Source: Ideonella dechloratans (GTDB lineage: Bacteria > Pseudomonadota > Gammaproteobacteria > Burkholderiales > Burkholderiaceae_C). Taken from it: a DNA stretch of 64,000 nt. Of this stretch, positions 32,566 through 61,196 are shown one piece after another; position 1 is the stretch's first letter; every line of letters starts with the position of its first letter. The notes beneath the pieces were generated by a model that was not told the origin of the DNA, ran no database searches, and saw only the letters and a program-made list of their open reading frames with translations. The stretch lies in NCBI RefSeq assembly GCF_021049305.1, contig NZ_CP088081.1, positions 496,001 through 560,000 on the forward strand. The letters are read 5' to 3'. A program made the position numbers and the translations under genes.

Positions 32566-32603
32566 TGTCAGCTCCCGGGTGATCAATTGCCCGGGAGCTG
32601 ACA
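32566..32603. repeat. proposed left end of the Tn7-like element (38-bp near-palindrome)
   Basis: Arms TGTCAGCTCCCGGG and CCCGGGAGCTGACA flank a 10-bp centre. Read inward it shares TGTCAG, CCGGGTGAT and a CCCG block in register with the motif at the right edge (55109 inward). TGT...ACA termini are usual for Tn7-like elements. Position supports an end: it lies between the flanking membrane gene and the leader-distal end of the array. The alternative is a factor-independent hairpin ending the array transcript, although no U-tract follows. Confidence 0.55.
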
Positions 32604-32703
32604 CTTACGCTGGTTCAGTGGCCGCGTCAGAGATATGCGGTTGAGGTTGTCGACATACTGTTCACTGTATGTGGTGCCGTCACCGTCAGGTGACTTGGTG
32701 GAC

Positions 32704-35700
32704 GAGTCCATCCCCGCGCGAGCGGGGCAGCCGGTTCTGGAACGGCCACGTACTCACACTCGCCGGGTCCATCCCCGCGAGAGCGGGGCAGCCAGGAGCG
32801 AGCTGGGCGCGAGGTAGGACAGCGCGGGTCCATCCCCGCGCGAGCGGGGCAGCCCGGCATTGAACGTGGAGGCGGCGCCTGCAATAGGGTCCATCCCCGC
32901 GCGAGCGGGGCAGCCCGGCCACTGCGCCGAACACCAGGTCGGCATCGGGGTCCATCCCCGCGCGAGCGGGGCAGCCGCTGCGCCGCGAGGTCATCACCAA
33001 GATCCGCAAGGTCCATCCCCGCGCGAGCGGGGCAGCCTGGTGCAAATGGAGAGATTGGTGGCCTAGCTTGGGTCCATCCCCGCGCGAGCGGGGCAGCCGG
33101 GTTCGTGTCGCGGAAGAATACCGATCCGCCGGGTCCATCCCCGCGCGAGCGGGGGAGCCGAGGCGCTTGGCGCCGATGCCTTCGCTACGTGGGGTCCATC
33201 CCCGCGCGAGCGGGGCAGCCCGTGCCACGCCGTCGTGCCAGACGGTCAGCAGGGGTCCATCCCCGCGCGAGCGGGGCAGCCCTGGCCTGGCCGCTGCCGT
33301 AGAGGCCGGTGCCGGGTCCATCCCCGCGCGAGCGGGGCAGCCATGGACATCGCCCTTCCGCCGGACCCTGAGCTGGGTCCATCCCCGCGCGAGCGGGGCA
33401 GCCATGCGGTCCAGCGCCTGCTGCCTCAGGATGGCGGGTCCATCCCCGCGCGAGCGGGGCAGCCGCTTCCTGAGCCGGCGCCTCCCAGCGGCTCTGGGGT
33501 CCATCCCCGCGCGAGCGGGGCAGCCTGATTCGCGCCATCCAGACCGCGGACGTCGGCGGGTCCATCCCCGCGCGAGCGGGGCAGCCGTGGGCCTGGGCCA
33601 GATCACCCGAACCTCGCGGGGTCCATCCCCGCGCGAGCGGGGCAGCCACGTCCTGGATGTCCTCCAGCAGGTGCTGCAGGGGTCCATCCCCGCGCGAGCG
33701 GGGCAGCCTACAGCTGGCTGCCCAGGCCGGTGCCGTAGGGGGGTCCATCCCCGCGCGAGCGGGGCAGCCGGGCTTGGGTCTGCATCGATGATCTCCATAT
33801 CGGGTCCATCCCCGCGCGAGCGGGGCAGCCGCAGTAATGGGTGACATGATGATCCTTGGCTGGGGTCCATCCCCGCGCGAGCGGGGCAGCCTGAGCCGCA
33901 CGGACGGCCTGCCGATGCCACTGGGGTCCATCCCCGCGCGAGCGGGGCAGCCACGGGGTTGGGTGTCACCTCGGCGCTGAGCGAGGGTCCATCCCCGCGC
34001 GAGCGGGGCAGCCCCGGCCGTGTAGGCCGTCCCAACACCAAGCAGGGGTCCATCCCCGCGCGAGCGGGGCAGCCACGATGCTCTACGCCAGCGCTTTCCT
34101 CTTGTCGGGTCCATCCCCGCGCGAGCGGGGCAGCCGTGTTGGGTGGTGCCACGGTGCCGGAGCACTGGGGTCCATCCCCGCGCGAGCGGGGCAGCCGCCA
34201 CGTTGGAGATGCTGATGCAGAGCCACTACGGTCCATCCCCGCGCGAGCGGGGCAGCCCGCGTGCACCAGGTCATTGATGCCGTCGGTCAGGGTCCATCCC
34301 CGCGCGAGCGGGGCAGCCGCATGGCCGGCCTGCAGCAGCTCGGTGGTGACGGGTCCATCCCCGCGCGAGCGGGGCAGCCTTGACAGCAAAGGACCCGAGG
34401 TCAGTCCGCAGGGGTCCATCCCCGCGCGAGCGGGGCAGCCAGCGCCACCGGCAAGCCGGACACCTGCGAGAAGGGTCCATCCCCGCGCGAGCGGGGCAGC
34501 CGCACGCTACCGCACCCACGGCCCGAACCGCTGGGGTCCATCCCCGCGCGAGCGGGGCAGCCCTGGAAGGTTTCGATCTGGTCGATGGTCCAGGAGGTCC
34601 ATCCCCGCGCGAGCGGGGCAGCCTGGATGTCACTCACCGTTGCGTCCGGGGCTCAGGGTCCATCCCCGCGCGAGCGGGGCAGCCGGCAGTAGACCCTAGA
34701 TTTGTTGATGTGACGACGGTCCATCCCCGCGCGAGCGGGGCAGCCTCATCGAAGACCACATGAAGCCGAACATGCAGGGGTCCATCCCCGCGCGAGCGGG
34801 GCAGCCCTGCCCAGCTTGCCGGGCCTCTTGATCAACGAGGGTCCATCCCCGCGCGAGCGGGGCAGCCGCGATGGCTGGAGACAACGGCGACGGCGTGCTG
34901 GGTCCATCCCCGCGCGAGCGGGGCAGCCGTCAACGAGCAATGGCGGCAGCGGCTGGAGCAGGGTCCATCCCCGCGCGAGCGGGGCAGCCTTCGGCGTCCA
35001 GTGCTCGGCCAATGGGCACCAGGGTCCATCCCCGCGCGAGCGGGGCAGCCGGACTGGACGGAAAGCATTTGCACGCCAATGGGGGTCCATCCCCGCGCGA
35101 GCGGGGCAGCCTAGTCAAAGGCGAGGGAGAGATTGGCGACGGTGGGTCCATCCCCGCGCGAGCGGGGCAGCCCTCGAAGCGGCGCACAACGCCCGCATGG
35201 GCCAGGGTCCATCCCCGCGCGAGCGGGGCAGCCCTGAAAGCAATGCGGCTCAACCGTGACCGCGAGGGTCCATCCCCGCGCGAGCGGGGCAGCCAAGACG
35301 CGCACGGCGGCCTACATCGTCAGCCGGGGTCCATCCCCGCGCGAGCGGGGCAGCCCAAATCATGAGCAAGCAAGCCACCGTCGCCCTGGGTCCATCCCCG
35401 CGCGAGCGGGGCAGCCGTGCCGTAGTAGGCCCAGGCGATGGCGTCCAGGGGTCCATCCCCGCGCGAGCGGGGCAGCCCAGCAGCGCATCCGCGACGCCAA
35501 GCTGGCCGAGGGTCCATCCCCGCGCGAGCGGGGCAGCCCTGGGTGATGTGTTTGGCCCGGCCAGCACCACGGGTCCATCCCCGCGCGAGCGGGGCAGCCC
35601 CCTGGTTGTTGCGGCTGCACTGCAGGCGCCGGGGTCCATCCCCGCGCGAGCGGGGCAGCCGGTCCTCAGGCGATGCGCCAGATGCGGGCCTGGGGTCCAT

Positions 35701-38100
35701 CCCCGCGCGAGCGGGGCAGCCCAGGGCGTGCCCGACTTCGAGGCATACCCTCAGGGTCCATCCCCGCGCGAGCGGGGCAGCCGTCGCGCAGGCGGCGCAG
35801 CACCACGGCGGGCGGGGTCCATCCCCGCGCGAGCGGGGCAGCCTACTCGAGGAAGGCCGTGCTGTCGTCGGCCGGGGGTCCATCCCCGCGCGAGCGGGGC
35901 AGCCGGTGCGGCAAAGGACTATGCGGGGATCATGCAGGGTCCATCCCCGCGCGAGCGGGGCAGCCCAGACCTTCGCGACCTCCTGAGCCTGGCGGTACGG
36001 TCCATCCCCGCGCGAGCGGGGCAGCCGCCATGTGGTTCTCCACGGGCGAGATCATCCGGGGTCCATCCCCGCGCGAGCGGGGCAGCCTCGTCGGGCTACC
36101 GGGAGGCGGTCATCCCGATGGGTCCATCCCCGCGCGAGCGGGGCAGCCTACATCGGCTACAACAAGGACATGGCCATCGAGGGTCCATCCCCGCGCGAGC
36201 GGGGCAGCCGACTGCATCCCATCGCAGTCCGGTGGCGCCTACGGTCCATCCCCGCGCGAGCGGGGCAGCCGGTGTCTCCGACCTCACGCCGCTCTACCGG
36301 GTGGGTCCATCCCCGCGCGAGCGGGGCAGCCACCAATGTGCAGACAGCCTACATGGCCGGCCGGGGTCCATCCCCGCGCGAGCGGGGCAGCCGCGTGGTG
36401 GAGCGCTATGGCAGCGGCTGGGAGGGGTCCATCCCCGCGCGAGCGGGGCAGCCCACACCGGGCCCGACGTGAAGCCCAATCAGCAGGGTCCATCCCCGCG
36501 CGAGCGGGGCAGCCAGGTGGATGGTGCTGGTGAGCAGCGCGGCCACGGGTCCATCCCCGCGCGAGCGGGGCAGCCCCCAGCGGCTGGCCCAGGAGCTGAA
36601 AAACGCCGGGTCCATCCCCGCGCGAGCGGGGCAGCCCTGGTGGTCTCGGGCTTGAAGAGGATGACCGAGGGTCCATCCCCGCGCGAGCGGGGCAGCCCAG
36701 GGGTACAAGGCCATCGGCCAGAGCGCAGAGGGTCCATCCCCGCGCGAGCGGGGCAGCCCAGGTGTGCGTCGGCCATCAGGGCGCGGTGCACGGTCCATCC
36801 CCGCGCGAGCGGGGCAGCCTTCTTGCTAGGGTTGCCCCGCAGCATGTGCACGGGTCCATCCCCGCGCGAGCGGGGCAGCCTTGATCTGGCGAGTGCACCA
36901 GCGAAGGGTGTTGGGTCCATCCCCGCGCGAGCGGGGCAGCCGGCTCCATTGCACCCGAAGTGTCCAATTTGCCGGGTCCATCCCCGCGCGAGCGGGGCAG
37001 CCGGCGGCATCTTCACGGTGGCCGGCGCGGTGCAGGGTCCATCCCCGCGCGAGCGGGGCAGCCAGGATGGTCACGTCGATGTCGGTCTGTGCCTGGGGTC
37101 CATCCCCGCGCGAGCGGGGCAGCCCAGCTCCGACCCCCCACTTGCCAATCAGCGGAGGGTCCATCCCCGCGCGAGCGGGGCAGCCGGCGCCTCGCTGGGC
37201 GTCGAGGACGGCAAGGAGGGTCCATCCCCGCGCGAGCGGGGCAGCCCTGCTGAGCTACGGCTTCGTGGTGGCCCTGGCGGGTCCATCCCCGCGCGAGCGG
37301 GGCAGCCCTGTTCGCCTCTGAAACCGTCAACGCGCTCTGGGGTCCATCCCCGCGCGAGCGGGGCAGCCTTCCCATGCTCGGCGCTGCAGCGCCGAGTCCT
37401 GGGTCCATCCCCGCGCGAGCGGGGCAGCCGTCGGCCACCGCGGTGTTGGCTATACCCTTGGCGGTCCATCCCCGCGCGAGCGGGGCAGCCGCGACTGCAT
37501 GAGCATTTCCAGCGTGGCGCGCGGGTCCATCCCCGCGCGAGCGGGGCAGCCTTGCCACCGGCCTGGCGGCGGGCGTCCTGGAAGGGTCCATCCCCGCGCG
37601 AGCGGGGCAGCCCTGCGGTGTTCCCCACCCCAGGTCGCGCATCAGGGTCCATCCCCGCGCGAGCGGGGCAGCCCCCGGCACGCTGGCAGACCGTGTGTGC
37701 GCCTGGGGTCCATCCCCGCGCGAGCGGGGCAGCCGCAGGCAGCCGCGGTCGCTCCTCAGTCGGATGGGGTCCATCCCCGCGCGAGCGGGGCAGCCCGGTC
37801 TTGGTAGCCATTTCGCTTCCTTGTGGGGGGTCCATCCCCGCGCGAGCGGGGCAGCCCTGAATGCCGTCCAGGCCGGCGACGGCGATTCGGGTCCATCCCC
37901 GCGCGAGCGGGGCAGCCTGGCGCACCTTTGTAGTTGCCGCCGGCTCGTTGGGTCCATCCCCGCGCGAGCGGGGCAGCCGCGGTGGCCAGCAAAGGCGTGA
38001 CGCTGGACTTGGGTCCATCCCCGCGCGAGCGGGGCAGCCGTCAGTGGTACGCTGCCCTCGGTGAACAGCCAGGGTCCATCCCCGCGCGAGCGGGGCAGCC
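32704..38100 (-). CRISPR. type I-E CRISPR array, 89 repeats and 88 spacers
   Basis: Strict 61-bp period: 29-bp repeats and 32-bp spacers; (38100-32732)/61 is exactly 88. In the transcribed (minus) sense the repeat is GGCTG, then stem CCCCGC-TCGC-GCGGGG, then the 8-nt handle ATGGACCC, matching the E. coli-type layout with handle ATAAACCG. The leader side is at 38.1 kb next to cas2. Variant repeats cluster at the far end (changes at 32705, 32780 and 33155), as expected for the oldest repeats. The last repeat base varies in about eight repeats. Long open frames on both strands here are artefacts of the repeat. Confidence 0.98.
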
Positions 38101-38155
38101 TCTAAAAGGCAAACTATTGTGCCAAAACAGATTTTTAAGGAGCCAGCCGGGGGAG
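38101..38155 (-). promoter_or_regulatory. CRISPR leader
   Basis: The 55 bp between the first repeat and the cas2 stop are strikingly AT-rich against the surroundings (runs such as AAAAATCTGTTTT on the minus strand). The position and composition fit the leader holding the array promoter and integration signals. I cannot place a definite promoter or IHF site. Confidence 0.75.
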
Positions 38156-38455
38156 TTAAGGGTTAACCCTCTTGGTTAACAAGGTGCCGTCCAATCGAAC
38201 AATCTCGCGCGTGGGAGTACCCACTGACTGCACGATCAATCCACCGTCAGCTTTGCGATCGGGGTACACCAATGTGATGGAGCCATTGCCCAGTTGGGCA
38301 TGCCAGTCACTCACAACCGACCAGATCTGTTCTCGGGCGCGCGTGCTCAGATGCGGGCTGGCGTACACACCCGGGGCCAACTCCAACATGGCCGACGACA
38401 GGAAGCCGCGATAGCGATCTTCCACGTCACGAGTGATCAGCATGGTCAGTGCCAT
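38156..38455 (-). CDS. cas2: CRISPR-associated endonuclease Cas2, I-E type
   Basis: A 99-aa Cas2e that bridges two Cas1 dimers in the spacer-integration complex. MLITRDVEDRYRGFLSS, LAPGVYASPHLSTRAREQIW and a C-terminal VRLDGTLL match the I-E family (E. coli has RAGVYVG ... TREMIW in the same place). ATG at 38455 overlaps the end of cas1 by 29 bp. It is the last cas gene before the leader. Confidence 0.95.
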   Translation of the reverse strand: MALTMLITRDVEDRYRGFLSSAMLELAPGVYASPHLSTRAREQIWSVVSDWHAQLGNGSITLVYPDRKADGGLIVQSVGTPTREIVRLDGTLLTKRVNP

Positions 38456-39317: not shown

Positions 39318-39330
39318 GGTGAACCTGCCT

Positions 39331-40125
39331 TCAGGTCCAGGCGCCGGGTGGGGCCAGTAGCAGGCAGCCGTAGCCGAAGCTGCGGTGGCGGCCCAGACCC
39401 CTGGCAAGCAAGGCTGTGAAGGCCCGCGGGTCCTGAACCTCCAATTGGCCGCGCACAGTCAGATCTGGCAGCAAGCCGCCATGGGTTCTCCGTCGCTCCC
39501 GCTGTGGATCGGCAGCGAAGGTGCGGCGAGCAATAGACGACAGTGAGAAAGTCACCGCGTGGTGGCTCAAAAGCTGCGCTGCGCCTTCACGTGCCAGTTC
39601 ACGGGCCAACCATCGACCATGGGCCAACTCACGGTTGCCAAGCGCATCGCCAGCAAAGGCCGAATTGAATGCCGCGTCGATTTCAGGGTAGCCGCCGCCC
39701 TGAGCGGAGCGGCTGCGCACCACGGGCGCGACACGGGTCTCGAAGCTCAGCCGCTGTCCTGGAGTCCAAGTCGTGGGCATGGGCTTGACGACCACCTGCG
39801 CGGTGTCATCCGCGCCCAATGCCTGGGCCGCCAGCGGATCGGTGAGAGAGGCTGAGGCCAGCGTCTCGCGCAGCGTCGACTCATCGGCCTGGCAGTACCC
39901 GATCAGTTGCTGGCTGCCTGGACGCTCCAACAGGGCAAAGGGTTTGGGCGCGTGTTCGCCGAGGGTGGCGCGCAGGGCTGCGTGCAAGGCGTAGCCGGGG
40001 TCCTCACGCAGTGCGCGCTGCCCAGTTGCTGTGGCCCACCGCGTCAGCGCGGCCAAGTCGGGAAGCAGCCGTAGCAACAGCAGTGGCGGTTGGGTTTCGG
40101 GCGATTGGCAGGCACGCGTGGTCAT
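39331..40125 (-). CDS. cas6e: crRNA endonuclease Cas6e (Cse3)
   Basis: Cuts pre-crRNA at the base of the repeat stem and stays in Cascade. GYALHAALRATLGE near the N-terminus includes the likely catalytic histidine region, and the glycine-rich C-terminal GLGRHRSFGYGCLLLAPP is the family signature. At 264 aa it is somewhat longer than the E. coli protein. It starts in an ATGA overlap with cas5e. Confidence 0.94.
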   Translation of the reverse strand: MTTRACQSPETQPPLLLLRLLPDLAALTRWATATGQRALREDPGYALHAALRATLGEHAPKPFALLERPGSQQLIGYCQADESTLRETLASASLTDPLAAQALGADDTAQVVVKPMPTTWTPGQRLSFETRVAPVVRSRSAQGGGYPEIDAAFNSAFAGDALGNRELAHGRWLARELAREGAAQLLSHHAVTFSLSSIARRTFAADPQRERRRTHGGLLPDLTVRGQLEVQDPRAFTALLARGLGRHRSFGYGCLLLAPPGAWT

Positions 40126-40838
40126 GGCGTTACCTTTCGTACGCGCTCGAACACCTGTTGGCGTCCGGCGTGCACGTCCAAGCTGAAGCGGCGCTCATCA
40201 CTGGTCTGATGCACACGGTGTTGGGGCATGACCTCGGCAGCGCCGACGTTGAAGTACACCGCTGCGGCCGATGGCACCTCGCCGTCAGGGATGGCGGGGG
40301 CTTGGTCCAGTGCTTCGACGGCGTCAGCAGCCTCCAAGATGCCCCGACTGATTCGGGTGGCGGGCAAGCAGCCCTTGCGACCCAGGAACAGCGGGCGCTT
40401 GGGGGTGTCCAGCGCTGCCGCCAGGTCGGCCAGAGTGGGCGGCTCTGTCTCTGGCTCAAGCCTCAGTGCAACCAGCACCGAGGCATCGGCCCGGTAGTCG
40501 CGGTAGCGAAGGTGCGGTGAGTTATAGGCGGCATCGCCGCCGCCGCGGGTCTCGACCACACCGCGGGTCGTCCATCCGCGATCGTCCTTGCCCAGTTGCG
40601 CGGTCTGGAAGTCGTTGAGCAAAGTGCCAGGTCGGTCAATGCGTGCGGCCCAGCGAATGCGAGCCTGCAACCGGTCCAGCGCCACGTTGTCACTGCGCTC
40701 CCAGCCCAGGGCATTGGCCAGCAGGCCAGTCAGCATCGATACCGCAGGCCAAGCTTGCACCGGTCGGCGATGGTCCACTGCCGTGGTCCCGAAGGACATC
40801 AGCGGCGCCTCCAGGCGCAGCAGCAGGTGGGCCGGCAT
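40122..40838 (-). CDS. cas5e: Cascade subunit Cas5e (CasD)
   Basis: RAMP-fold protein that holds the crRNA 5' handle. LLLRLEAPLMSFGTTAVDHRRP near the N-terminus (family motif region, residues about 5-26), GWERSDN and GRKGCLPA are typical. ATG at 40838 (MPAHLLLRLEAPL) follows the cas7e stop by 2 nt and gives 238 aa. Confidence 0.94.
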   Translation of the reverse strand: MPAHLLLRLEAPLMSFGTTAVDHRRPVQAWPAVSMLTGLLANALGWERSDNVALDRLQARIRWAARIDRPGTLLNDFQTAQLGKDDRGWTTRGVVETRGGGDAAYNSPHLRYRDYRADASVLVALRLEPETEPPTLADLAAALDTPKRPLFLGRKGCLPATRISRGILEAADAVEALDQAPAIPDGEVPSAAAVYFNVGAAEVMPQHRVHQTSDERRFSLDVHAGRQQVFERVRKVTP

Positions 40839-40840
40839 GT

Positions 40841-42058
40841 TCAGGCCGCCTCGATCTGCTGGCGCAGGCTGCCGCACAGGGCCGCCAAGCCCACACTCTC
40901 CACACCATCCAATGCCGGTGGTGTGACGCTGAGTTGCCGGCGCTGGGTGTGCACGCCATAGGCACGATCCAGATTGGCCAAGTGGTCCTGCAAAGCCAGT
41001 ACCGATCGGCCGAACACATCGCCCTTGGGCTGAACGGCATTTCGGAAGGCGTTGGCCAGAGTGCGGGGCTGGTCGTCGCCCACTTCCACCAACATGAACT
41101 CGGCATGCGCGTAGGGCGCGGTGCTCCCCTTCTTGGCACCGGGCGAGGTGCGGGCGATCAGTTGCACGAGGCGTTCAACCACCTGACCTGCCAGCACCGC
41201 GTCGTTCCCCAGATTGCTCACCAGCAGGGCCACATCGATCGCTACGTAGCTGTAGAACAAGCCGCTGGTCAACTCGATGTCGAAGATGCCTGCCGAGCCG
41301 GCCTCGCCTTCTTCGCTCTGCTGCCGAAGATCGTCTACGGCGGTGACGTAGTCCAACTCCTGCTCCAGTGCATGCACGGTGAACGCATGGGCCACATGCA
41401 CCGGTGCGTCCACATTGGCGCGAGGATCGGATGTCACCATGCGCCCGAACAGGGCTGATTCCAGGCCGGCCGAGCCGCTGGTGTTGGCAGATAGAGCGCG
41501 CAGGTTGTCCTTCAGCGGGTCAAGCCGCTCCTTGAGGTTGTCTTCCACTGTCTTCAAGGCCTTCTTGTCGGGCGCCTTGTCGACCGAGGCCAGCAGTGCT
41601 GCATCAGCCGCCAGCATTTCGGCCAGGTCACGGGCCACGCCTTGCAGGTATGCGGTTTCAGGGTGGCCAAAGAACAGTGCCTGGCGAGCCTTGGGGTCCG
41701 CGCCATTCTTTCCGTACAGGGCTACGTTGAGCATCTCGGTCAACTTGGTCAGCACTGTCTCGTGCAGCACCGGCAGTCCCTCCAGGGCTGTTGGCAGCAG
41801 TGCGTGCTTGACCAGGTCTTTGCTGCGATCGCCCATGGGAATGTTCAGGCCCTGCAGGGCATGGGGCACCTTGGCGGCGGATGCGTGGTCTGCCATGCCG
41901 GCGAAGCGCCAGCGACGCTTCAGGGCTTGCGATGAGACGCGGGTGCGCACCGTGCCGCCAAAGGGCAGACGTTTGGCCAATCCAGCGTCGTCGCGGTTGA
42001 GCAAGGTGCCCGGATAACTGGCAAGACTGTGGATTTGAATGAAACGCGGATGTGGCAT
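40841..42058 (-). CDS. cas7e: Cascade backbone subunit Cas7e (CasC)
   Basis: Forms the six-subunit crRNA-binding backbone. FIQIHSLASYPGTLLNRDDAG, then AKRLPFGG and RVSSQALKRRWR at the N-terminus are hallmark motifs. ATG at 42058 has GGAGGAGAGA directly upstream; it gives 405 aa, slightly longer than the E. coli subunit. Confidence 0.95.
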   Translation of the reverse strand: MPHPRFIQIHSLASYPGTLLNRDDAGLAKRLPFGGTVRTRVSSQALKRRWRFAGMADHASAAKVPHALQGLNIPMGDRSKDLVKHALLPTALEGLPVLHETVLTKLTEMLNVALYGKNGADPKARQALFFGHPETAYLQGVARDLAEMLAADAALLASVDKAPDKKALKTVEDNLKERLDPLKDNLRALSANTSGSAGLESALFGRMVTSDPRANVDAPVHVAHAFTVHALEQELDYVTAVDDLRQQSEEGEAGSAGIFDIELTSGLFYSYVAIDVALLVSNLGNDAVLAGQVVERLVQLIARTSPGAKKGSTAPYAHAEFMLVEVGDDQPRTLANAFRNAVQPKGDVFGRSVLALQDHLANLDRAYGVHTQRRQLSVTPPALDGVESVGLAALCGSLRQQIEAA

Positions 42059-42118
42059 GTTCTCTCCTCCCCCTGGGAATATGTAGTCTGTTGGCGAGTC
42101 GTATGGCAGGGCCAAAGG

Positions 42119-44306: not shown

Positions 44307-44325
44307 GGCCATCCTCCTCCCTTGT

Positions 44326-44341: not shown

Positions 44342-44563
44342 CTTGGTATTGACCGGTAACGCCTAGCTGGGGCCATCTCCATCTACTGTGCGGAGCTAAT
44401 AGTTAAGCGTTTCACATACCGGCTGGATCAAATATGAGAGTGGTGCTCGGGGGCGTCAAGCCAGCGCTGAGCGAATCTCCTCAAACGGAATGACTGACAT
44501 GGTTCAGCACCGCTGCCTGTCGAAGGGAGATCCCGCGTTCGCACATCACGCACCACGCCATGC
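44342..44563 (-). promoter_or_regulatory. cas3-cse1 intergenic region
   Basis: About 220 bp without a gene. On the minus strand TTGATC and TTAACT (19-nt spacing) around 44430-44400 could be a weak promoter for the Cascade operon. The gap suggests that cascade genes have their own promoter, as in E. coli. Confidence 0.35.
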
Positions 44564-47314: not shown

Positions 47315-47649
47315 TGTGTGAGCTTTCCACGGCACTACCACTGACTGTCATACCCAGATTGGTCATTGCCACCAAGTCCGAGAGTCAGGCTGGGCTTCAA
47401 CTTGACGGGAGAGGATTAGCTACGCCGCCGCACATCGCGTACCGAGAGATCGGCATGGGGAGCCGTGCACTTTGCTCAAGAGCGCAGAGACAGTGCGGCT
47501 CGCCGGCGATGCCTGGGCAACTCTGTGAAGTACGTCGAAAGTCAGACACGACCTGCGACCGTACCTGCTCGCCGTTAGCCCCTCTCCATCATCGATCGAC
47601 GAACTGGTCATGGCCGAAGTTGTCGCTCTAGCCGCCGAATGCAAATGAC
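47315..47649. other. tniQ-cas3 intergenic region
   Basis: 335 bp between the tniQ stop and the cas3 start, both on the minus strand. No gene is seen; open frames here on the + strand lack support. It contains the proposed cas3 promoter. Confidence 0.55.
47347..47375 (-). promoter_or_regulatory. possible cas3 promoter
   Basis: On the minus strand TTGGTG (47375-47370), 17-nt spacer, TATGAC (47352-47347). The expected start near 47340 precedes the cas3 ATG at 47314 by about 26 nt. Confidence 0.4.
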
Positions 47650-48729
47650 TCAGGTCAGTCTGTCGTGGTCCTGGTGTTCCTCGCGGCCATGTTCCGCACC
47701 AAAGCCTTCTCCCGCGGGGGCTTTTCCTCCTTGCAAAGAAAGCGCAATCCTCCGGTAGCCCTCAGGCACCTCATCAAAGTCCCTCAGCAGGTGGTTGAAG
47801 CGAATCGCATGGGCCCGCCGGGCTTCTCCAAGACGCCCCGGCAGATCCACCATCAACCAAGCAGCCATCTGCAGCAGTTGATGTCGCTCATCGACGGATC
47901 GGGTCTCCAGCGGGGTCCAAGACTGCAGGGTGAGCGGATGCTCCACCCCCAGCCTGTCGCCTAGGTACTCCGCGAGATGCAGGGCCCGATTGCGGCGGGT
48001 CAGCAGCGAACAGATCATGTGGAAGACGGTGAGCTGTTCGATCAGGTCCGGCACGAAGTCACCTGCCTCGAACTCGGTCCAGAGTTGGTTGAGCCAAGCT
48101 GCGGCCTCTTCATCCAGACAGCCAGGGGGAGGCGCCACCGCCTGGCGCAGATCGAATCCGCAGGCGTGGCACACGTTCTGCCCCATGAAGTCTTCCTGTC
48201 CGGGCTGACCCAGATCCGTGCGCGTGAAACCCACACCGGCCTGGCATACCGGGCAACAGTCCAGCAGCATGCAGCGGTGCCGCGAGCACACCGTGTTCAA
48301 GGCCAGGCGCCAGCGTCGGCGGAAGTAGGGTTCCTTGTCTTCGGCCAGGCAACCCGGGCAGAACATCAGTCCGTGCCCCAGCCAGGTGCGGTGGTACATC
48401 TTCAGCCGCAGCACCCAGGGCAGCACGCCGTTGGACTTGAAGCGCCGATAGAGGATGCCGTCGTAGGCCCGCAGAGAGGTCCTGTGTGCCACCTCCAGTG
48501 GGGTGCCCGTGCGCTGGCTCAGCCGCTCGATCAGCCAGGAGGGCCCGAACCGGTCGATATCCCTGTTCCAGACCTGTCGCTGGTTGCCGAATTCCAGGTT
48601 GCAGAACGTCTGCACCTTGAGGCCCATGCCATGGGACAGGCGAATGAGCCAGGACGATAGAAGCTCGTCGGCCAGTGGCTTGTAGCGCACCGGCCAAAGC
48701 GGCAGCCAGGGAGTGGCTGCCTTGCTCAT
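47650..48729 (-). CDS. tniQ: TniQ-family target-selection protein
   Basis: A 359-aa TniQ/TnsD-type protein that links the TnsC regulator to a target. N-terminal WPVRYKPLADELLSSWLIRL is the TniQ signature; zinc-binding clusters follow: FCPGCLAEDKEPYFRRRW, CSRHRC, CCPVC and CHACGF. It is short compared with Tn7 TnsD, lacking a long C-terminal DNA-binding part, like TniQ of Tn5053-type and CRISPR-associated elements. It starts in an ATGA overlap with tnsC at 48729, so it belongs to the tns operon, not the cas operon. What it recognises is unknown. Confidence 0.9.
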   Translation of the reverse strand: MSKAATPWLPLWPVRYKPLADELLSSWLIRLSHGMGLKVQTFCNLEFGNQRQVWNRDIDRFGPSWLIERLSQRTGTPLEVAHRTSLRAYDGILYRRFKSNGVLPWVLRLKMYHRTWLGHGLMFCPGCLAEDKEPYFRRRWRLALNTVCSRHRCMLLDCCPVCQAGVGFTRTDLGQPGQEDFMGQNVCHACGFDLRQAVAPPPGCLDEEAAAWLNQLWTEFEAGDFVPDLIEQLTVFHMICSLLTRRNRALHLAEYLGDRLGVEHPLTLQSWTPLETRSVDERHQLLQMAAWLMVDLPGRLGEARRAHAIRFNHLLRDFDEVPEGYRRIALSLQGGKAPAGEGFGAEHGREEHQDHDRLT

Positions 48730-49631
48730 GGCGCGCGTCGGTACATCTTTCTCTTGGAGGGCGGAACCCAGTCGAGCCGGCTCAGGCCTTGCTCGCTGAT
48801 TTGCTCGGTGCCATTGCGGATGGCTTCGATGGCCGCGGCCTTGATCAGGTCGCAAATGTCGCCCAGCGTGCCCTCGCTGCGGGCCAGGATGGCCATCATG
48901 AGGCCCGGCATGTGCAGGCCGGAGGGCTTTCTCAGGGGCATGCGCCGCTCCAGCGTCATCAGCACCTCGCCCAGGTCCCCGTTGGCCGACCAGCGCGGCA
49001 TCTCGATGGGCACGAAGCGGCTGGACATCTGCGAGTCCGCCGCGAAGGCGTTGTAGGCCTCCTCGATGCCCGAGGCGACGATGGAGACCTTGGTCATGTT
49101 GCTCAGGCTCTTGAGCGCGTTGCGGAACTCCCGCTGGCGATTCAGGCTGCCGGCGATCAGGTGATGGATCTCGTCGATGATCAGGATCTTGACGCCCAGT
49201 TCACGAAACAGCCGTTTGACCTGAGAAAGCTTCTCGTGCTTCGGCGAGGTGGGCTTGTATGGGGCCATCAGGGCATCGAGGATGCCTGCGTAGAACTCCG
49301 ACAGGTCCGGCTGGGGCGGGGCGTCCACCATGACCACCGGGCACTGCGTGGTCTCCTGGTCCGGGCTCAGGTCAGGAGGATGCAGGTCCAGGAAGCGCTC
49401 CAGGATGGAGGTCTTGCCGCTGTAGGAAGGCCCCACCAGCAGATAGCACGGCATGCGGGTGACCTTGGGGTGAGTCAGAAGCTCCTCGAACTTGGTCAGC
49501 GCGGTCTTGGCATGGCGCAGGGGCAACCAGGCGCCTGCCGCGATGATGTGGATGCGCTCGGCGTCGGACAGCAAGAGCTGCTCGCGCGTGGCGGCCGACA
49601 GGTGCGCGAGATCCGGGGCAGCCTTACTCAT
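48726..49631 (-). CDS. tnsC: Tn7-like AAA+ regulator TnsC (TniB-like)
   Basis: ATP-dependent regulator that joins target selector and transposase. YLLVGPSYSGKTSILERF holds Walker A, ILIIDEIHHLIAG Walker B, and VSIVASGIEEAY sensor 1. The 301-aa length is shorter than Tn7 TnsC and near TniB. ATG at 49631 overlaps the tnsB stop by 8 bp. Confidence 0.92.
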   Translation of the reverse strand: MSKAAPDLAHLSAATREQLLLSDAERIHIIAAGAWLPLRHAKTALTKFEELLTHPKVTRMPCYLLVGPSYSGKTSILERFLDLHPPDLSPDQETTQCPVVMVDAPPQPDLSEFYAGILDALMAPYKPTSPKHEKLSQVKRLFRELGVKILIIDEIHHLIAGSLNRQREFRNALKSLSNMTKVSIVASGIEEAYNAFAADSQMSSRFVPIEMPRWSANGDLGEVLMTLERRMPLRKPSGLHMPGLMMAILARSEGTLGDICDLIKAAAIEAIRNGTEQISEQGLSRLDWVPPSKRKMYRRAP

Positions 49632-50446
49632 CGTCGTCCAGCGGCCGGATCTTGGCCGGGTCATAGCCGTTCAGCACGGGCGGTGCCTGCGTGGGGACCA
49701 CGCCTGAAACGGTGGGCAGGTCGGTCTTGGTGGCCTTGCGCGCCTTGGCGTGTTGGACGCGTTTTTGCCGGGCCGTGCGGGCCGCCTTGGTCTTGACTGC
49801 CGAGTCCTCCTCGATGGCGCGCTGGCGGTTGATCAACTCGAACAGCGCGCGCTCGTCGTAGTGGGTCATGCCCAGGTCTGCCGCCTGCTTCCTGGCCGCC
49901 CGGAATTCCCACATGCTCACTGGCGGCAGTGAGGTGTCCCGGTAGGGAATGGCGAAATACCGCCCCGCGTTCGGATCAAAGAAGTACAGCACGCTGATGT
50001 CCCGCGGGTCGTAGCGGAACCTGAACTTGCGCTTGAGCTTGGGCTCCTCGGGATCCTGGGTGTTCATCCAGGGGCGCAGCACATCGTGGAAGTAGTGCAG
50101 GCCATCGAGCACGACCCCGTAATCCTGCACGGTCCGCTCCTCGAAAGGCATGAAGTCGATGCGCAGCTTCTCCGTGTCGGACCGGCGCGCGGGCAGGCCG
50201 CGACCGGGTTGGGCTTTCGTGCCCAGGATGCCCTCTCGCCACTTGGCCAGCGGCGTGGTGCCGATGCCGGTGTGGATGTCCCGGTGGTAGCGGGAGAAGA
50301 AGAGGACCAGCCACTGCTCCAGCTCGTCGATCGTGAGACAGGCATTGCCTTCGGCGTCGTAGATGCCCTTTTGTTTGGGATCGGAGAAGGTGGCGCCCGC
50401 CATGGTCTTCAAGCCCTCGGAGACCGTGCCCATCAGCCGCTCGATG
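49624..50446 (-). pseudogene. tnsB: tnsB, 3' part (separated by IS21 insertion)
   Basis: C-terminal part of the DDE transposase. It begins at AYIERLMGTVSEGLK, whose glutamate is the third DDE residue, followed by the Mu-type beta-barrel domain (KFRFRYDPRDISVLYFFDP) and a basic C-terminal tail that in Tn7 contacts TnsC. With the 5' part and one target copy it makes exactly 1920 bp, 640 codons including stop, in a single frame, so the gene was intact before insertion. Confidence 0.92.
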
Positions 50447-50453
50447 TAGGCGC
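50447..50453. repeat. left target-site duplication of IS21 element
   Basis: TAGGCGC directly beside the IS end TGCGTATTCCAC; repeated at 53110-53116. Confidence 0.95.
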
Positions 50454-50637
50454 TGCGTATTCCACGCGATGGCGGACACGATTCCACGCTGATGGCGGAC
50501 AGTGTTCCACCATGATGGCGGACAGTGTTCCACGCTGAAGGCGGACAGCATTCCAAACTGATGGCGGACACCTGCGGGGTGTTCTGAGTGACCCGAACGC
50601 GGCATACGCTGCCCGGTTTTTTTGACCGGAGCCAGCG

Positions 50638-52182
50638 ATGCCCACACCCAGGGTCACCATGAGCAAACTACGACACACACTGCAACTGCTGCACCGCGGG
50701 GCCTTGAGCACCCGTCAAATCGGTGCCGCCCTCGGCATCTCCAAATCCACTGTCAGCGAGATAGCCAGCTACGCGCGCGTGGCCGGCGTGGACTGGGCTA
50801 CGGCCCAGAGCCTGAACGACGACGAACTCCAGGCCCGGCTTTACAAGCCACCCGTGGCGCGCGAGTCCCGGCACCTCGAACCCGACCACGCCCACATCCA
50901 CCGCGAACTGCGCCGACCTGGCGTGACGCTGCAGCTGCTGTGGGAGGAATACCAGCAACAGCACAGCGGTCAGGCGTACAAGTACAGCGCCTTCTGCGAG
51001 AAGTACAAGGCTTGGGCCCGGCGCCTGCAGCGCTCCATGCGCCAGACCCACTCGGGCGGTGACAAGCTCTTCGTGGACTACGCCGGCCAGACCGTGCCCG
51101 TCGTGGACGCCAGCACCGGCGAGATACGCCCGGCCCAGGTCTTCGTGGCAGTGCTGGGCGCATCGAACTACACCTACGCCTGCGCCACTGCCAGCCAGAA
51201 GGCCGCTGACTGGGTGGCCAGCATCATTGCCACGCTGGAGTTCATCGGCGGCGTGCCCCGCCTGCTGGTGCCCGACCAGCCGCGCGCCCTCATGGCCCGC
51301 CCCGACCGCTACGAGCCCACCGCGCACCGCCTGCTCGAAGAACTCTGTGCGCACTACAGCCTGGCCGTGATGCCCGCGCGCCCGGCCAAGCCACGCGACA
51401 AACCCAAGGTGGAGGTCGCCGTGCAGGTGGTCGAGCGCTGGATTCTGGCCCGGCTGCGCCACCAGACCTTCTTCAGCCTGGCCGAGCTCAACCGGGCGAT
51501 TGCCGCCTTGCTGGTGGACTTGAACCAGCGCGCGTTCAAGAAGCTGCCGGGCAACCGCGCCAGTGCCTTCGCCGAGCTTGACCGGCCGGCCCTGCGCCCC
51601 CTGCCGGCGGTGCGCATGCCCATCGCGCGCTTCAAACCCGCCCGCGTCAACATCGATTACCACGTCGAGCTCGATGGCCACTACTACTCGGTGCCCCACG
51701 CCCTGGTGGGCGAGCCGGTGGAGTTGCGCATCACGGCCGGCACGGTCGAAGTCCTGCATGGCGGCAAACGGGTGGCCGCCCACGCCCTCAATCCCCGCCG
51801 GGGTGCACACACCACCACACCTGAGCACATGCCGGCCTCGCACCGGGCGCACCTGCAGTGGACGCCGGCCAAGCTCATCGCCTGGGGCGAGCGCGTGGGT
51901 GCGGCCACCGCCGCCGTGGTGCGCTGGCAGATGGAGCACCGCCAGCATCCCGAGCAGGGTTACCGCTCCTGTCTGGGCCTCATGCGCCTGGGCCGTGAGT
52001 ACGGGGCTGACCGGCTGGAGGCCGCCTGTGCGCGGGCGCAGTCGATTCGCTCACCGTCCTACAAGAGCATCGCCTCCATCCTGGGCTGCGGCCTGGACCA
52101 GCGGCCGCTGGATGCGCCGATGGCCGCACAGGCGAGCCTGCCGCTGCACGAGAACGTGCGCGGGCCGGACTACTACCACTGA
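50638..52182 (+). CDS. istA: IS21-family transposase IstA
   Basis: A 514-aa DDE transposase. An N-terminal HTH (STRQIGAALGISKSTVSEI) precedes the catalytic core with aspartates in KLFVDYAGQT and LLVPDQPRA and the glutamate in KPKVEVAVQVVERW. A C-terminal beta-rich domain follows. It appears intact. ATG at 50638 is used; ATG at 50659 is possible. Confidence 0.95.
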   Translation: MPTPRVTMSKLRHTLQLLHRGALSTRQIGAALGISKSTVSEIASYARVAGVDWATAQSLNDDELQARLYKPPVARESRHLEPDHAHIHRELRRPGVTLQLLWEEYQQQHSGQAYKYSAFCEKYKAWARRLQRSMRQTHSGGDKLFVDYAGQTVPVVDASTGEIRPAQVFVAVLGASNYTYACATASQKAADWVASIIATLEFIGGVPRLLVPDQPRALMARPDRYEPTAHRLLEELCAHYSLAVMPARPAKPRDKPKVEVAVQVVERWILARLRHQTFFSLAELNRAIAALLVDLNQRAFKKLPGNRASAFAELDRPALRPLPAVRMPIARFKPARVNIDYHVELDGHYYSVPHALVGEPVELRITAGTVEVLHGGKRVAAHALNPRRGAHTTTPEHMPASHRAHLQWTPAKLIAWGERVGAATAAVVRWQMEHRQHPEQGYRSCLGLMRLGREYGADRLEAACARAQSIRSPSYKSIASILGCGLDQRPLDAPMAAQASLPLHENVRGPDYYH

Positions 52183-52218
52183 GCTCCAACGCGCAAGCAA
52201 ACCCAACAAGGAAGAACC

Positions 52219-52956
52219 ATGCTCAACGAACAGACCTTGAACCAACTGCGCGCCCTGCGCCTGGACGGCATGGTGGCCGCCCTCAGCGACGCGGCCACCC
52301 ACATCACAGCCAGCGAACTGCCCTTTGAACAACGTCTGGCGCTGCTGGTGCAGCGCGAGGTGGACTGGCGTGACAGCAAACGCCTGGAGCGCCTGCTCAA
52401 GGCGGCCCGCCTGAAGGTCTCCAGTGCCTGCCTGGAGGACATCGACTGGCGCGCCAGCCGGGGCCTGGGCCGGGAGGTCATCACCAGCCTGGCCGGCGGC
52501 GACTGGCTGCGCCATGGCCACAACGTGCTGCTGACCGGCGCCACCGGGTGCGGCAAGACGTGGCTTGCCTGCGCACTGGGGCAGCAGGCCGCGCGTCTGG
52601 GCTTCTCGGTGCTCTACACCCGCGCGCCACGGCTGCTGCAGGAGTTGCACGTGGCCCACGGCGATGGCAGCCTGGGCAAACGGCTGGCGCAACTGGCGCG
52701 GCTGGACCTGCTCATCCTGGACGACTTCGGCATCGCGCCGATTGCCGCGCACGAGCGAAACGACCTGCTGGAGTTGCTCGACGACCGGGTGGGTGCGCGC
52801 TCGACGCTCATCACCAGCCAGTTGCCGGTGACGGCCTGGCACGCCTGGCTGGACGAGCCCACGCTGGCCGACGCCATCCTGGACCGCATCGTGCACGGCT
52901 CGCACAAGATAGCCCTCAAGGGCGAGTCGATGAGAAAGCTGGCAAAGGCCGTCTGA
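52219..52956 (+). CDS. istB: IS21-family helper ATPase IstB
   Basis: A 245-aa AAA+ ATPase required for IS21 transposition. LLTGATGCGKTWLACALG is Walker A and DLLILDDFGIAPI Walker B. It starts 36 nt after istA with AAGGAAG just upstream. Intact, so the element could still be active. Confidence 0.95.
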   Translation: MLNEQTLNQLRALRLDGMVAALSDAATHITASELPFEQRLALLVQREVDWRDSKRLERLLKAARLKVSSACLEDIDWRASRGLGREVITSLAGGDWLRHGHNVLLTGATGCGKTWLACALGQQAARLGFSVLYTRAPRLLQELHVAHGDGSLGKRLAQLARLDLLILDDFGIAPIAAHERNDLLELLDDRVGARSTLITSQLPVTAWHAWLDEPTLADAILDRIVHGSHKIALKGESMRKLAKAV

Positions 52957-53109
52957 GCCGGCCGCGCCGACCGCCATTCCACGCTGATGGCGGACACTTC
53001 GGCTACGATTTGAGCGTCACTCAGGACACCCGCGCAACGTGTCCGCCATCGCCTGGAACGCTGTCCGCGATGGGAATGGAATCACTGTCCGCCATCAGTG
53101 GAATGCGCA

Positions 53110-53116
53110 TAGGCGC
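53110..53116. repeat. right target-site duplication of IS21 element
   Basis: TAGGCGC following the IS end at 53109, identical to 50447-50453. Confidence 0.95.
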
Positions 53117-54206
53117 CATAGTGCGGAACCTTGACGGGCCGCAGGTGCAGGTCGATGTGGTACTCCTTGGCGGCCACGCGCAGCATGTTGCCCCGGAACT
53201 CCCGGGCGTTGTCCATCTGCAGGATGTCCATCACGCCATAGAACGGCCACTCGATGTCGCCGCACCCCAGGCGTGACATCCAGCTCTCCTTGGGCATGAT
53301 GGCGTGGGAGACGCACATGCCGGCCGACATGGCCGAGGGGCTGTCCAGCGACAGGTACAGGCCCAGGCACACGCGGCTGAAGGAGTCGATGGCCAGCGTG
53401 ATCCAGGACCGGGCGATGGGCAGGCGGTGCTCGTCGTCGACGATCATGACGGGCAGCAGTGTGTGGTCCATCTGCACGTGGGCCAGGGGCCACTCTGCGT
53501 TTGGCACGGGGTTCTTGTGAACAGCGTACTTCTCGCGTGCAACCTTGACGCCTTCGCGGCGCTTGAGCTTGACCTGCTCGGAGATCCAGTCCAGATGGCG
53601 ATAGATGGTCGTGGCCGCAGGCAGTGGTTCGATCTTGGCGTTCGAACACAGGCGCCGGATCTCGCGGGCGGCAGCGGCAGGCGTGGGCTTTTGCAGCGTG
53701 AGGAACTTGTCCTTGATGTACTCCTGGAGGATCAGCAGGACTTCGGGGCTCAGGCGGCTCTTGCCGCGGCCGCCTGAGCGCCGGATGGGCAGCAGCACGG
53801 ACAGCGCCTCGGTGGCTCGGTAGTCGGCCACCCAGCGGTAGATGGTGGCCACGCTGACGCCGGCCTCTTCCCCCACCCGCCGGTAGTCCTCGCGAGACCG
53901 GTCGCGTCTCGGACTGAGCAGTGGCTCCAGCAGGGTCAACCGGTTCTCGGCGATCTCCCATTCTTCCTGGGACACGGCTTCCAGGTCGCGCTCGGTGTCG
54001 GTGGCCCTGGTCGGGGTCAGGCGCGCCGGTGCTTCAAGGGTGCCGATCTGGAGCAGGACCTTTTCGTTCGACGAGGGCTCGCGGGCCAGGACCTGGTTGA
54101 GGTCGACCACGCGAAGGACCTGGTACTCGCGGCCCATGTGGGTGACCGTCGCGCCCTTGGCCACATAGAGCACCGGTGCTTGGGTCTTGGGCTGAGACGG
54201 GCTCAT
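53117..54206 (-). pseudogene. tnsB: tnsB, 5' part (separated by IS21 insertion)
   Basis: N-terminal part of the Tn7-like DDE transposase that cuts and joins the 3' ends. HTH-type DNA-binding region GEEAGVSVATIYRWV near residue 105; the RNase-H core starts with the first aspartate in HVQMDHTLLP and the second in ILQMDNAREF. The reading stops at VPHYGAY, where the IS21 element sits 5 residues before the catalytic glutamate. ATG at 54206 overlaps the tnsA stop in an ATGA. Confidence 0.92.
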
Positions 54207-54862
54207 GGGGCCTCTGCGGGGCGCCACAGCGCCACATCCGCGCCAAACGGGCTGTCCCAGTGGGTGTCCAACTGCCCGGTGGCCAGCAGATGCCAGATCA
54301 CGGGCAACAGTTCTGCGCGCTCCTGGTCCGTGGCACAGGCTGCGGCCAGGGTCTGGCTGGAACTGCGGCGGCCCCTGGAAGCGCCGAGCGCCAGAAATAC
54401 CTGCTCGACCAGGTGGGGCAGCGGTGAGTGGTGCAGAAAGCTGCGCAGGAACTTGATGTTCTGCAGGCGGGCTGTGCGGATGTCCTTGTCGGACTTGCGC
54501 ACAAACCGCCAGCCGCGCTCGTTGGCGAATTGCTCTGCAGCGGCGAACTTGGGGGCGTAGAGCGCCTCGTTCGCCCGGTAATCCTCTGCGGTCTTGATCT
54601 CTGTGAGTTCGCTGGGGGCAACGTGCCCCGAAGCGTCCGGGCAGAAGTGGACCAAGACATCGGGCACATAGCCGCGAGGGACACCGGAAACCGGCACCCG
54701 GACCGGCTGGACCTCGTACCGCTCAACCCGGGGATCGAAATCCAGCAGGATCAGGTATTCCCATTCCAGGGGCGACTCGAAGTCGGCATGTCCCTGCGCC
54801 TTGGCCGAGGCATGGCGCCCAGTAACGTGGATGTGGTTCTTGGGGATGCGCCGGACGGGCAT
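54203..54862 (-). CDS. tnsA: Tn7-like endonuclease TnsA
   Basis: Restriction-enzyme-like subunit that cuts the 5' ends, allowing cut-and-paste movement. The catalytic set is visible: glutamate in FESPLEWEYL, aspartate in YVPDVLVHF and the ELTEIKTAED segment with the lysine. N-terminal RRIPKNHIHVTG is typical of the family. ATG at 54862 gives 219 aa; ATG at 54898 is possible. It is the first gene of tnsABC-tniQ, read inward from the right end. Confidence 0.92.
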   Translation of the reverse strand: MPVRRIPKNHIHVTGRHASAKAQGHADFESPLEWEYLILLDFDPRVERYEVQPVRVPVSGVPRGYVPDVLVHFCPDASGHVAPSELTEIKTAEDYRANEALYAPKFAAAEQFANERGWRFVRKSDKDIRTARLQNIKFLRSFLHHSPLPHLVEQVFLALGASRGRRSSSQTLAAACATDQERAELLPVIWHLLATGQLDTHWDSPFGADVALWRPAEAP

Positions 54863-55080
54863 GTGCCTTGGTCTGTGATGGGCTGGTGAGGAATCCATCC
54901 AGTCTCATCTTCTTCGCTCCGAGGGGGCATCCTCAAATTCGAGGGTGACTGATATGCATTGGGTTGTGTCAGGGGCGCTGGTCACTACAACGAACACCTG
55001 GCCCAGCGCGCGCTGGACTTGAGTACACCTGTTCAGGCGCCCAGAAAATGGCAGACCACGCATCAAGATCTATTCGCCAG

Positions 55081-55109
55081 GCGGGTGATCAATCACCCGG
55101 TACCTGACA
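55081..55109. repeat. proposed right end of the Tn7-like element
   Basis: Read inward from 55109: TGTCAGGTACCGGGTGAT, then TGATCACCCG. It matches the left-end motif at 32566 in TGTCAG, CCGGGTGAT and CCCG with the same spacing, in inverted orientation. It contains its own palindrome CGGGTGAT/ATCACCCG. It lies between the start of tnsA and the end of the neighbouring 97-aa gene, for which it might instead be a terminator. Confidence 0.55.
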
Positions 55110-61144: not shown

Positions 61145-61196
61145 GACTTCACACCATGGGGTTGCCGCTGCATCACCACTGTCCTCACCACTGTCC

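What the first reader, a model, noticed from the sequence alone, without database searches (positions are those of the whole stretch)
32566..55109. Complete type I-E CRISPR-Cas system inside a proposed Tn7-like transposon
Seen: tnsA-tnsB-tnsC-tniQ, all eight I-E cas genes and an 88-spacer array lie in one co-oriented block, and related inverted motifs (TGTCAG...CCGGGTGAT...CCCG) occur at both edges of exactly this block. Known: characterised CRISPR-associated transposons such as I-F3, I-B, I-D and V-K generally lack Cas3 or the adaptation genes. Inference: this is a Tn7-like element that has captured a full immune system as cargo, or a stage before or beside guided transposition, using I-E, which is not among the well-known classes.
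Basis: partly seen in the sequence, partly recalled or inferred. Interest (0 to 1): 0.92.

Follow-up and report, generated by a model that had tools for sequence, protein, structure and literature searches.

The report
Complete CRISPR system as transposon cargo
A jumping element that settles at the tail end of the lipA gene carries a whole, apparently intact CRISPR immune system as baggage; nothing found suggests that CRISPR steers the jumping, and the element's own transposase gene is now split.

Summary
The genes are real: tnsA-tnsB-tnsC-tniQ, eight I-E cas genes and an 88-spacer array lie co-oriented. Two things were missed. An IS21-family insertion with a 7-bp target duplication splits tnsB. 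And the TGTCAG palindromes, found only here among 299 genomes, are not the transposon ends. The real ends (TGT-N7-TCGAAGT) lie at window 24814, in the last lipA codon, and 18.6 kb beyond the window (C1:578636), flanked by GTGCT; the element is 57.8 kb. In six genus genomes lipA stands directly beside the far-side gene. TniQ relatives sit at the lipA 3' end in 31 of 80 loci plus G099; no I-E gene was traced to them. A probable congener carries a type III system in the same slot. No spacer or guide-like match to the insertion site exceeds controls. Cas3 and Cas1 keep their conserved motifs; one spacer resembles a prophage tail gene. Best reading: a lipA-homing Tn7-like transposon with a complete I-E system as immune cargo, not an RNA-guided transposon; probably unable to move on its own now.

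The parts
23195..24832 (+). lipA (lipoyl synthase) open frame; true start lies further in; its last codon is the insertion site and the frame runs 5 residues (VNDSK) into the transposon end
   Evidence: NCBIfam TIGR00510 lipA; similarity to genus relatives stops at 24799-24811
24809..24813 (.). target-site duplication GTGCT (second copy directly after the right end, C1:578637-578641, outside the window)
24814..24866 (+). left transposon end: TGT-N7-TCGAAGT with two TnsB-site-like repeats at 24825 and 24845
   Evidence: like the ends of betaproteobacterial relatives
24901..26763 (+). left-end gene shared by this transposon family, unknown function
   Evidence: homologues in 27 of 80 related loci and 50% identical in L205; no Pfam, PADLOC, NCBIfam or PHROGs hit
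28630..29199 (-). HipA-like gene (cargo, possibly truncated)
   Evidence: PF07804; matches only part of the NCBIfam YjjJ model, below cut-off
29613..31424 (-). AAA+ ATPase (cargo)
   Evidence: PF00004; Lon-like core below cut-off; weak IetA hit
31737..32504 (+). hypothetical protein, 255 aa (cargo)
   Evidence: open frame; no family hit
32704..38100 (-). CRISPR array: 89 repeats, 88 spacers of 32 nt (I-E type)
38156..38455 (-). cas2e
   Evidence: TIGR01873
38427..39407 (-). cas1e (open frame; true start probably further in)
   Evidence: TIGR03638; PDB Cas1 hits
39331..40125 (-). cas6e
   Evidence: PF08798; TIGR01907 below cut-off
40122..40877 (-). cas5e
   Evidence: PF09704; TIGR01868
40841..42115 (-). 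cas7e
   Evidence: PF09344
42119..42685 (-). cse2 (cas11e)
   Evidence: PF09485
42678..44312 (-). cas8e
   Evidence: PADLOC Cas8e 2.7e-114
44564..47341 (-). cas3, full length, HD and helicase domains
   Evidence: Pfam, Cas3e 1.4e-150, PDB Cas3 alignment
47650..48729 (-). tniQ, 359 aa (start chosen by me)
   Evidence: PF06527; tree
48726..49664 (-). tnsC (TniB-type ATPase)
   Evidence: PF05621 1.9e-63
49624..50453 (-). tnsB, 3' piece
   Evidence: PF09299; 47-69% identical in the loci L078-L099 that have a hit
50454..53109 (+). IS21-family insertion splitting tnsB, flanked by TAGGCGC; identical copy at C1:569193-571850
53117..54227 (-). tnsB, 5' piece
   Evidence: helix-turn-helix hits; tblastn to relatives
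54203..54898 (-). tnsA
   Evidence: PF08722, PF08721
54899..54916 (-). TnsB-site-like repeat before tnsA (by eye), separated from the right end by about 27.7 kb of other DNA
   Evidence: comparison
55471..64000 (-). RHS gene and secretin/pseudopilin-like genes, part of a stretch running to about C1:578.5 kb between tnsA and the right end

Best explanation
This is a 57.8-kb Tn7-like transposon inserted in the last codon of lipA. TnsA and TnsB would cut and join the TGT...ACA ends, TnsC would link them to the target, and TniQ would direct insertion to the lipA 3' end (inferred from relatives). Between tniQ and the left-end gene it carries a complete type I-E CRISPR-Cas system with 88 spacers, which works as ordinary adaptive immunity: Cas1-Cas2 add spacers, Cas6e cuts the transcript, Cascade finds matching DNA, Cas3 destroys it (inferred from gene content). 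The system is cargo that sits in the transposon and benefits the host; it does not choose the landing site. In this strain an IS21-family element has split tnsB, and searches found no second TnsB and no second strong TnsC in the genome, so the element is probably stuck while its CRISPR system remains. Shown: ends, duplication, lipA site, gene content, split tnsB, relatives at lipA in which no I-E gene was found. Inferred: protein-guided homing, active immunity, loss of mobility.
For: Ends and GTGCT duplication at 24814 and C1:578636. In G302, G303, G299, G259, G309 and G076, 6 of the 11 genus genomes compared, the gene found beyond the right end follows lipA within about 60 bp. Matching 5-bp duplications in 8 of 14 elements examined (window included), against 1 chance hit in 26 shifted controls of 13 loci each. 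All 33 such rows of the TniQ tree fall in one 57-row clade, support 100/99. I-E genes within the locus in 1 of 80 loci, and there metH stands between cas3 and tnsA. Cas7e in 4 of 30 genomes of lipA-site relatives: one on another contig than the element, three where the tniQ-lipA stretch shows no I-E gene. The same slot holds IetAS in L078 and L086 and, in L088/L205, a type III system with Cas1 and Cas2 followed by the same left-end gene. Spacers against the flanks: 9 mismatches at best, 20 shuffled sets 9-11. One TnsB and one strong TnsC hit in the genome (a second, E 3.8e-4, lies in an 878-aa frame elsewhere).
Against: tnsA is 27.7 kb from the right end, while seven relatives have it 101-137 bp away, so the right part was rearranged and the 57.8-kb unit may never have moved as a whole. 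The I-E locus may have entered after landing. G301, G181 and G305 of the 11 genus genomes showed no far-side match in the stretch fetched, and G304 and G310 have other DNA in between. No convincing protospacers in phages (80 records, best E 3e-3), in the plasmid rows seen (40 and 60 of 133 records; best short match 28 nt, E 0.4), or in IMG/VR for the four spacers tested, so immune use rests on one 3-mismatch prophage match. 34 of the 50 loci handed to one search were not placed at lipA, in several cases because the contig ends first. Some relatives have other genes at the right end, for example a ptsI-like flank in G190 and G169 (my reading).
Confidence: 0.88

Rival explanations
1. An I-E CRISPR-associated transposon at an early stage: Cascade and TniQ together guide insertion, while Cas3 and adaptation are still kept, like the active I-D element CyCAST.
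For: tniQ and cas3 are neighbours in the same direction, 308 bp apart; a complete I-D CAST is a precedent (PMC10293859, passages); a 2024 review lists I-E among captured subtypes (PMC11656645, section 7).
Against: TniQ relatives home to lipA and no I-E gene was traced to them; TniQ end branch 0.35, near the tree median 0.36; no spacer or stray guide-like match to the site above controls; long array, Cas3 and Cas1-Cas2 kept, the opposite of typical CASTs.
Confidence: 0.05
2. The reader's block 32566-55109 is a transposon of its own with TGTCAG ends, nested in a larger island.
For: Motif pair unique in the genome and not found in 298 others, inverted, flanking exactly this block.
Against: No target duplication; relatives of these tns genes use other ends, which here lie at 24814 and C1:578636 with a duplication; both motifs sit just after stops of open frames and fold as hairpins.
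Confidence: 0.04
3. The transposon landed at lipA first and the I-E locus (and the RHS/secretin stretch) was added later by recombination or other insertions, so the CRISPR system has not travelled with it.
For: tnsA lies far from the right end; several insertion sequences in the right part; the nearest TniQ relative L078 has IetAS after tniQ, no I-E cas found.
Against: The cas genes fill the cargo slot between tniQ and the left gene, as a type III system does in L205. Insertion scars around the I-E locus were not searched for systematically.
Confidence: 0.3

Closest known systems
Tn7-like transposons with complete CRISPR-Cas systems as cargo (Benler et al. 2021, PMC8649781, passages; type I-C in a Vibrio navarrensis Tn7-like element, PMC6360697, passages)
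   Same: Complete immune system between Tn7-like ends, described there as infrequent
   Different: Type I-E with an 88-spacer array, lipA attachment site; tnsB split here
Type I-D CAST CyCAST (Faure et al. 2023, PMC10293859, passages)
   Same: Tn7-like element with complete, apparently active CRISPR-Cas including adaptation genes
   Different: CyCAST has TniQ plus TnsD and showed RNA-guided insertion; here one TniQ was found, no guide to the site, and relatives home to lipA without I-E genes found
I-F3, I-B, V-K CASTs (PMC11406308, passages; PMC11656645, section 7)
   Same: TnsC and TniQ of the same broad families (solved CAST TnsC and TniQ are the nearest PDB hits)
   Different: They almost universally lack nuclease and adaptation genes and have short arrays; here these are kept
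Canonical Tn7 (glmS homing by TnsD; recalled)
   Same: Cut-and-paste machinery genes, 5-bp duplication, homing to the 3' end of a conserved gene
   Different: lipA instead of glmS; the left end abuts the gene; TniQ of about 359 aa

Membership tests
Tn7-like transposon | TnsB and TnsC with TnsA and/or TniQ (definition seen in PMC11406308) | tested here: met
   tnsB present in two pieces, split by an IS21-family element
Tn7-like transposon | TGT...ACA ends with repeated TnsB sites and 5-bp target duplication (recalled definition) | tested here: met
Tn7-like transposon | Transposition activity | not testable with these tools
   sequence only; own tnsB is split and no second copy found
Type I-E CRISPR-Cas | cas3-cas8e-cse2-cas7-cas5-cas6-cas1-cas2 in canonical order | tested here: met
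   order as quoted in PMC6360697
Type I-E CRISPR-Cas | 29-nt repeat and 32-nt spacers (recalled) | tested here: met
   (61-nt unit, 88 of 88 spacers)
CRISPR-associated transposon (CAST) | CRISPR effector genes inside a Tn7-like element | tested here: met
CRISPR-associated transposon (CAST) | Loss of target-cutting nuclease (most, not all, CASTs) | tested here: not met
   Cas3 full length with HD and helicase motifs aligned to solved Cas3
CRISPR-associated transposon (CAST) | Loss of adaptation genes, short array (most CASTs) | tested here: not met
CRISPR-associated transposon (CAST) | Guide matching DNA beside the insertion site (array spacer or delocalised guide; not required of protein-homing CASTs) | tested here: not met
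   spacers; element against flanks: lipA side 7 mismatches (23 of 60 controls as good) and 14 exact (30 of 60 as long); right flank 7 mismatches (14 of 60) and 16 exact (3 of 60)
CRISPR-associated transposon (CAST) | RNA-guided insertion | not testable with these tools
   needs an assay

The most novel reading that the evidence does not exclude
The lipA-homing Tn7-like family loads complete CRISPR-Cas systems of different types directly behind tniQ (I-E here; type III with reverse transcriptase, Cas1 and Cas2 in an Ideonella MAG), and in some members Cascade-TniQ contact already gives a second, RNA-guided route into mobile elements while immunity is kept: a proteobacterial counterpart of the active I-D CAST, caught at its start.
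Probability: 0.06. Interest if true: 0.9.

Novelty: new variant of a known kind. Interest (0 to 1): 0.55.

Why it matters
It shows a complete I-E immune system, with its spacer record, packed between Tn7-like ends, and a transposon family that uses the lipA 3' end as landing site in many Proteobacteria and, in this sample, one Acidobacteria genome (L119). Searches for 'Tn7-like' with 'lipA' and 'attachment site' (3 papers, unrelated by title), 'Tn7-like' with 'lipoyl synthase' (0), and 'TniQ' with 'lipA' and 'TnsB' (0) gave no report of such a family in the held library; supplements and most subscription papers were not searched. If complete CRISPR systems enter such elements as plain cargo, this family is a place to look for the steps between cargo and guide, a middle step so far described for I-D elements of cyanobacteria (PMC11406308, passages).

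Tried and rejected
Rejected: Xylophilus (L134, the contig of G232) as a second I-E transposon, because metH lies between cas3 and tnsA; an earlier attempt with a wrong frame gave no hit. Led nowhere: TniQ in viral contigs (48 pattern matches, none confirmed); TniQ in plasmids (291 records, all under 60% identity); protospacers in phages and plasmids (the wide plasmid matches look like other CRISPR arrays, not followed up; 40 of 80 phage rows were not listed); four spacer ends in IMG/VR (0 matches each; the other 84 spacers were not scanned there). Right-end flanks of 29 relatives gave no common gene (only one pair of flanks was alike). The lipA label did not cluster within the tree as then known (14 changes; 95 of 500 shuffles as low), because many rows had no left flank in view; 16 rows were added later and the shuffle test was not repeated. 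The tree kept 78 of 84 TniQ rows; 6 short ones were dropped, and stops in rows were set to X. One outgroup row (L140) has a lipA in compatible orientation on a contig that I did not check. 15 of the 65 loci without lipA in view were not handed, and L094 and G099 were not handed to (G099 has no Cas7 match; L094's contig shows no I-E gene). An early control of seven blocks made the right flank look slightly special; sixty blocks did not for mismatches, and 3 of 60 reached its longest exact match.
Full report
What is there. The window is C1:496001-560000 of a 4.54-Mb genome in two contigs. On the minus strand lie tnsA, tnsB, tnsC (TniB type), tniQ, then cas3, cas8e, cse2, cas7, cas5, cas6, cas1, cas2 and a CRISPR array. 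The array has 89 repeats (87 identical in the 27-nt core) and 88 spacers, all 32 nt, none repeated. It missed that tnsB is in two pieces: an IS21-family element of 2,656 bp sits inside, with TAGGCGC on both sides; an identical copy interrupts an RHS gene 20 kb away, with GCCTGAG on both sides. The own genome has one TnsB and one strong TnsC-type hit (a second, weak hit lies elsewhere in an 878-aa frame).

The proposed ends are not the ends. The TGTCAG...CCGGGTGAT pair is real and rare: two places in the genome, one of them matching on both strands, and none, with up to one mismatch, in the 298 other family genomes searched. But the flanking five bases differ (CTAGC, GATAC). Several related tnsABC-tniQ loci carry other repeats before tnsA, of the form CGAAGTAAATGAGAAAA or CAGAAGTTAATGCGACAA. 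In this genome that repeat stands at 24825 and 24845, and at C1:578.6 kb on the other strand. There the ends read TGTCAATGACTCGAAGT and TGTCAGATGATCGAAGT, and GTGCT flanks both.

Empty site. All 16 genus genomes, own included, have the lipA region. In all 11 others whose downstream DNA I compared, similarity to the window (pieces over 120 bp) stops at 24799-24811, at the lipA end. In G302, G303, G299, G259, G309 and G076 the next match follows within about 60 bp, at 83.5 kb of the extended window; in G310 it follows after 3.3 kb; in G304 another match, at 82.7 kb, follows after 1.7 kb; G301, G181 and G305 gave no far-side match in the stretch fetched. So the DNA between is absent from those sites. 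G305 keeps a 48-bp, 83% identical remnant of a similar left end after lipA.

A lipA-homing family. A scan of one genome for each of 84,980 species with a TniQ alignment kept the best 80 of 160 loci. LipA lies at the left-end side inside 15 of them and in G099. In 8 of 14 elements with both regions in view, the window's included, a 5-bp duplication matched; shifted controls gave 1 hit in 26 trials of 13 loci. In these eight the insertion falls between -1 and +5 nt of the same codon end of lipA, at +2 in the window, G099, L101 and L121. The betaproteobacterial relatives mostly share the CGAAGT/CAGAAGT type of repeat; the gammaproteobacterial ones have TGT ends with another repeat. In the TniQ tree all 33 lipA rows (17 labelled, 16 added) fall in a 57-row clade (100/99), and the window's nearest row is a Roseateles MAG (58% identity), itself at lipA.

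CRISPR is cargo. Of the 80 loci, one has I-E genes nearby (L134), and there metH stands between cas3 and tnsA, so those genes lie on the far side of the tnsA end. Many loci are cut by contig ends, so this is a view of what was held. Of 30 genomes with lipA-site elements, 4 have a Cas7e gene; one is on another contig than the element, and in the other three (L100, L101, L103) the tniQ-lipA stretch shows no I-E gene. In a sample of 299 family genomes, 16 have such a TniQ and 27 a Cas7e-like gene; two, G000 and G232, have both. The slot behind tniQ varies: IetAS in L078 and L086, and in the Ideonella MAG (L088, L205) Cas6, CorA, Cas10, RAMP proteins, a reverse transcriptase, Cas1 and Cas2, ending at a left gene 50% identical to the window's and at lipA. 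That genome appears to be the same as G306 of the window's genus, because lipA has nearly the same coordinates (inference).

Guide test. Against the lipA flank and the right flank, the best of 88 spacers has 9 mismatches; 20 shuffled sets gave 9 to 11. The element against the last 300 nt of lipA: best 32-mer 7 mismatches, longest exact match 14; 23 of 60 host blocks did as well on the first and 30 of 60 on the second. Against the 200-nt right flank: 7 and 16; 14 of 60 and 3 of 60 did as well; the 16-nt match lies inside tniQ. Of the loci fetched by then, one spacer (32916-32947) stands out: 3 mismatches to a phage-tail-family gene on C2; the next best spacer has 7, and so has the best shuffled one.

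Mechanism. Established families give the roles: TnsA/TnsB cut and join, TnsC links, TniQ brings the target. Homing to lipA by TniQ without Cas proteins is inferred from the relatives. Immunity is inferred from complete genes: Cas3 and Cas1 align with solved structures over their conserved motifs (motif names recalled). With tnsB split, movement by its own enzymes is unlikely.

Literature. Complete CRISPR-Cas in Tn7-like elements is described as infrequent (PMC8649781, passages); a complete I-C system in a Vibrio element is reported (PMC6360697, passages); a complete, apparently functional I-D CAST exists (PMC10293859, passages). A 2024 review names I-E among subtypes captured by Tn7-like transposons without details (PMC11656645, section 7); the passages seen of the 2025 CRISPR classification name I-F, I-B, I-D, I-C and IV-A for Tn7-like CASTs, not I-E (PMC12669027). 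PMC11406308 (passages) calls I-F3 the only known CAST group outside cyanobacteria. A metagenomic CAST survey that these papers cite was not held. Searches for a lipA-homing family found none.

Limits. The right 27.7 kb between tnsA and the right end holds RHS, secretin-like genes and insertion sequences, so the present element is a reworked one; whether I-E was aboard when it landed is open.

Noticed in passing
L205 (G344:C2:489001-509000) and L088, Ideonella sp. MAG2: lipA-site Tn7-like element carrying Cas6, CorA, Cas10, RAMP proteins, a reverse transcriptase, Cas1 and Cas2 between tniQ and the left gene.
   Followed up: partly
L050 (G000:C2:311001-331000), array at C2:326-330 kb: Second I-E-like cas locus and a 70-repeat array with another repeat sequence on the second contig of the same genome.
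   Followed up: partly
window 32916-32947; L052 around 10239-10270: One spacer of the array matches a phage-tail-family gene on C2 with 3 mismatches, perhaps an escaped prophage.
   Followed up: partly
L095 and L116 (Polynucleobacter sp. JS-Safj-400b-B2): Two tnsABC-tniQ sets in tandem on one contig beside lipA, as if two elements used the same site.
   Followed up: no
L067 4187-4245 (G305): A 48-bp left-end-like remnant directly after lipA without the rest of the window's element in the stretch held: an old or replaced insertion at the same site.
   Followed up: partly
window 24901-26763: Gene of unknown function next to the left end, with homologues in 27 of 80 related loci; no family model hits it.
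   Followed up: partly
window 32566-32603 and 55082-55109: Two related palindromes not found in 298 other genomes; hairpins after stops of open frames; function unexplained.
   Followed up: partly
window 17011-17098: Rfam match to the Burkholderia anti-hemB small RNA.
   Followed up: no
L079 12201-17453: 1750-aa ATP-binding, SMC-like protein behind tniQ (my reading of the sequence; no PADLOC hit).
   Followed up: no
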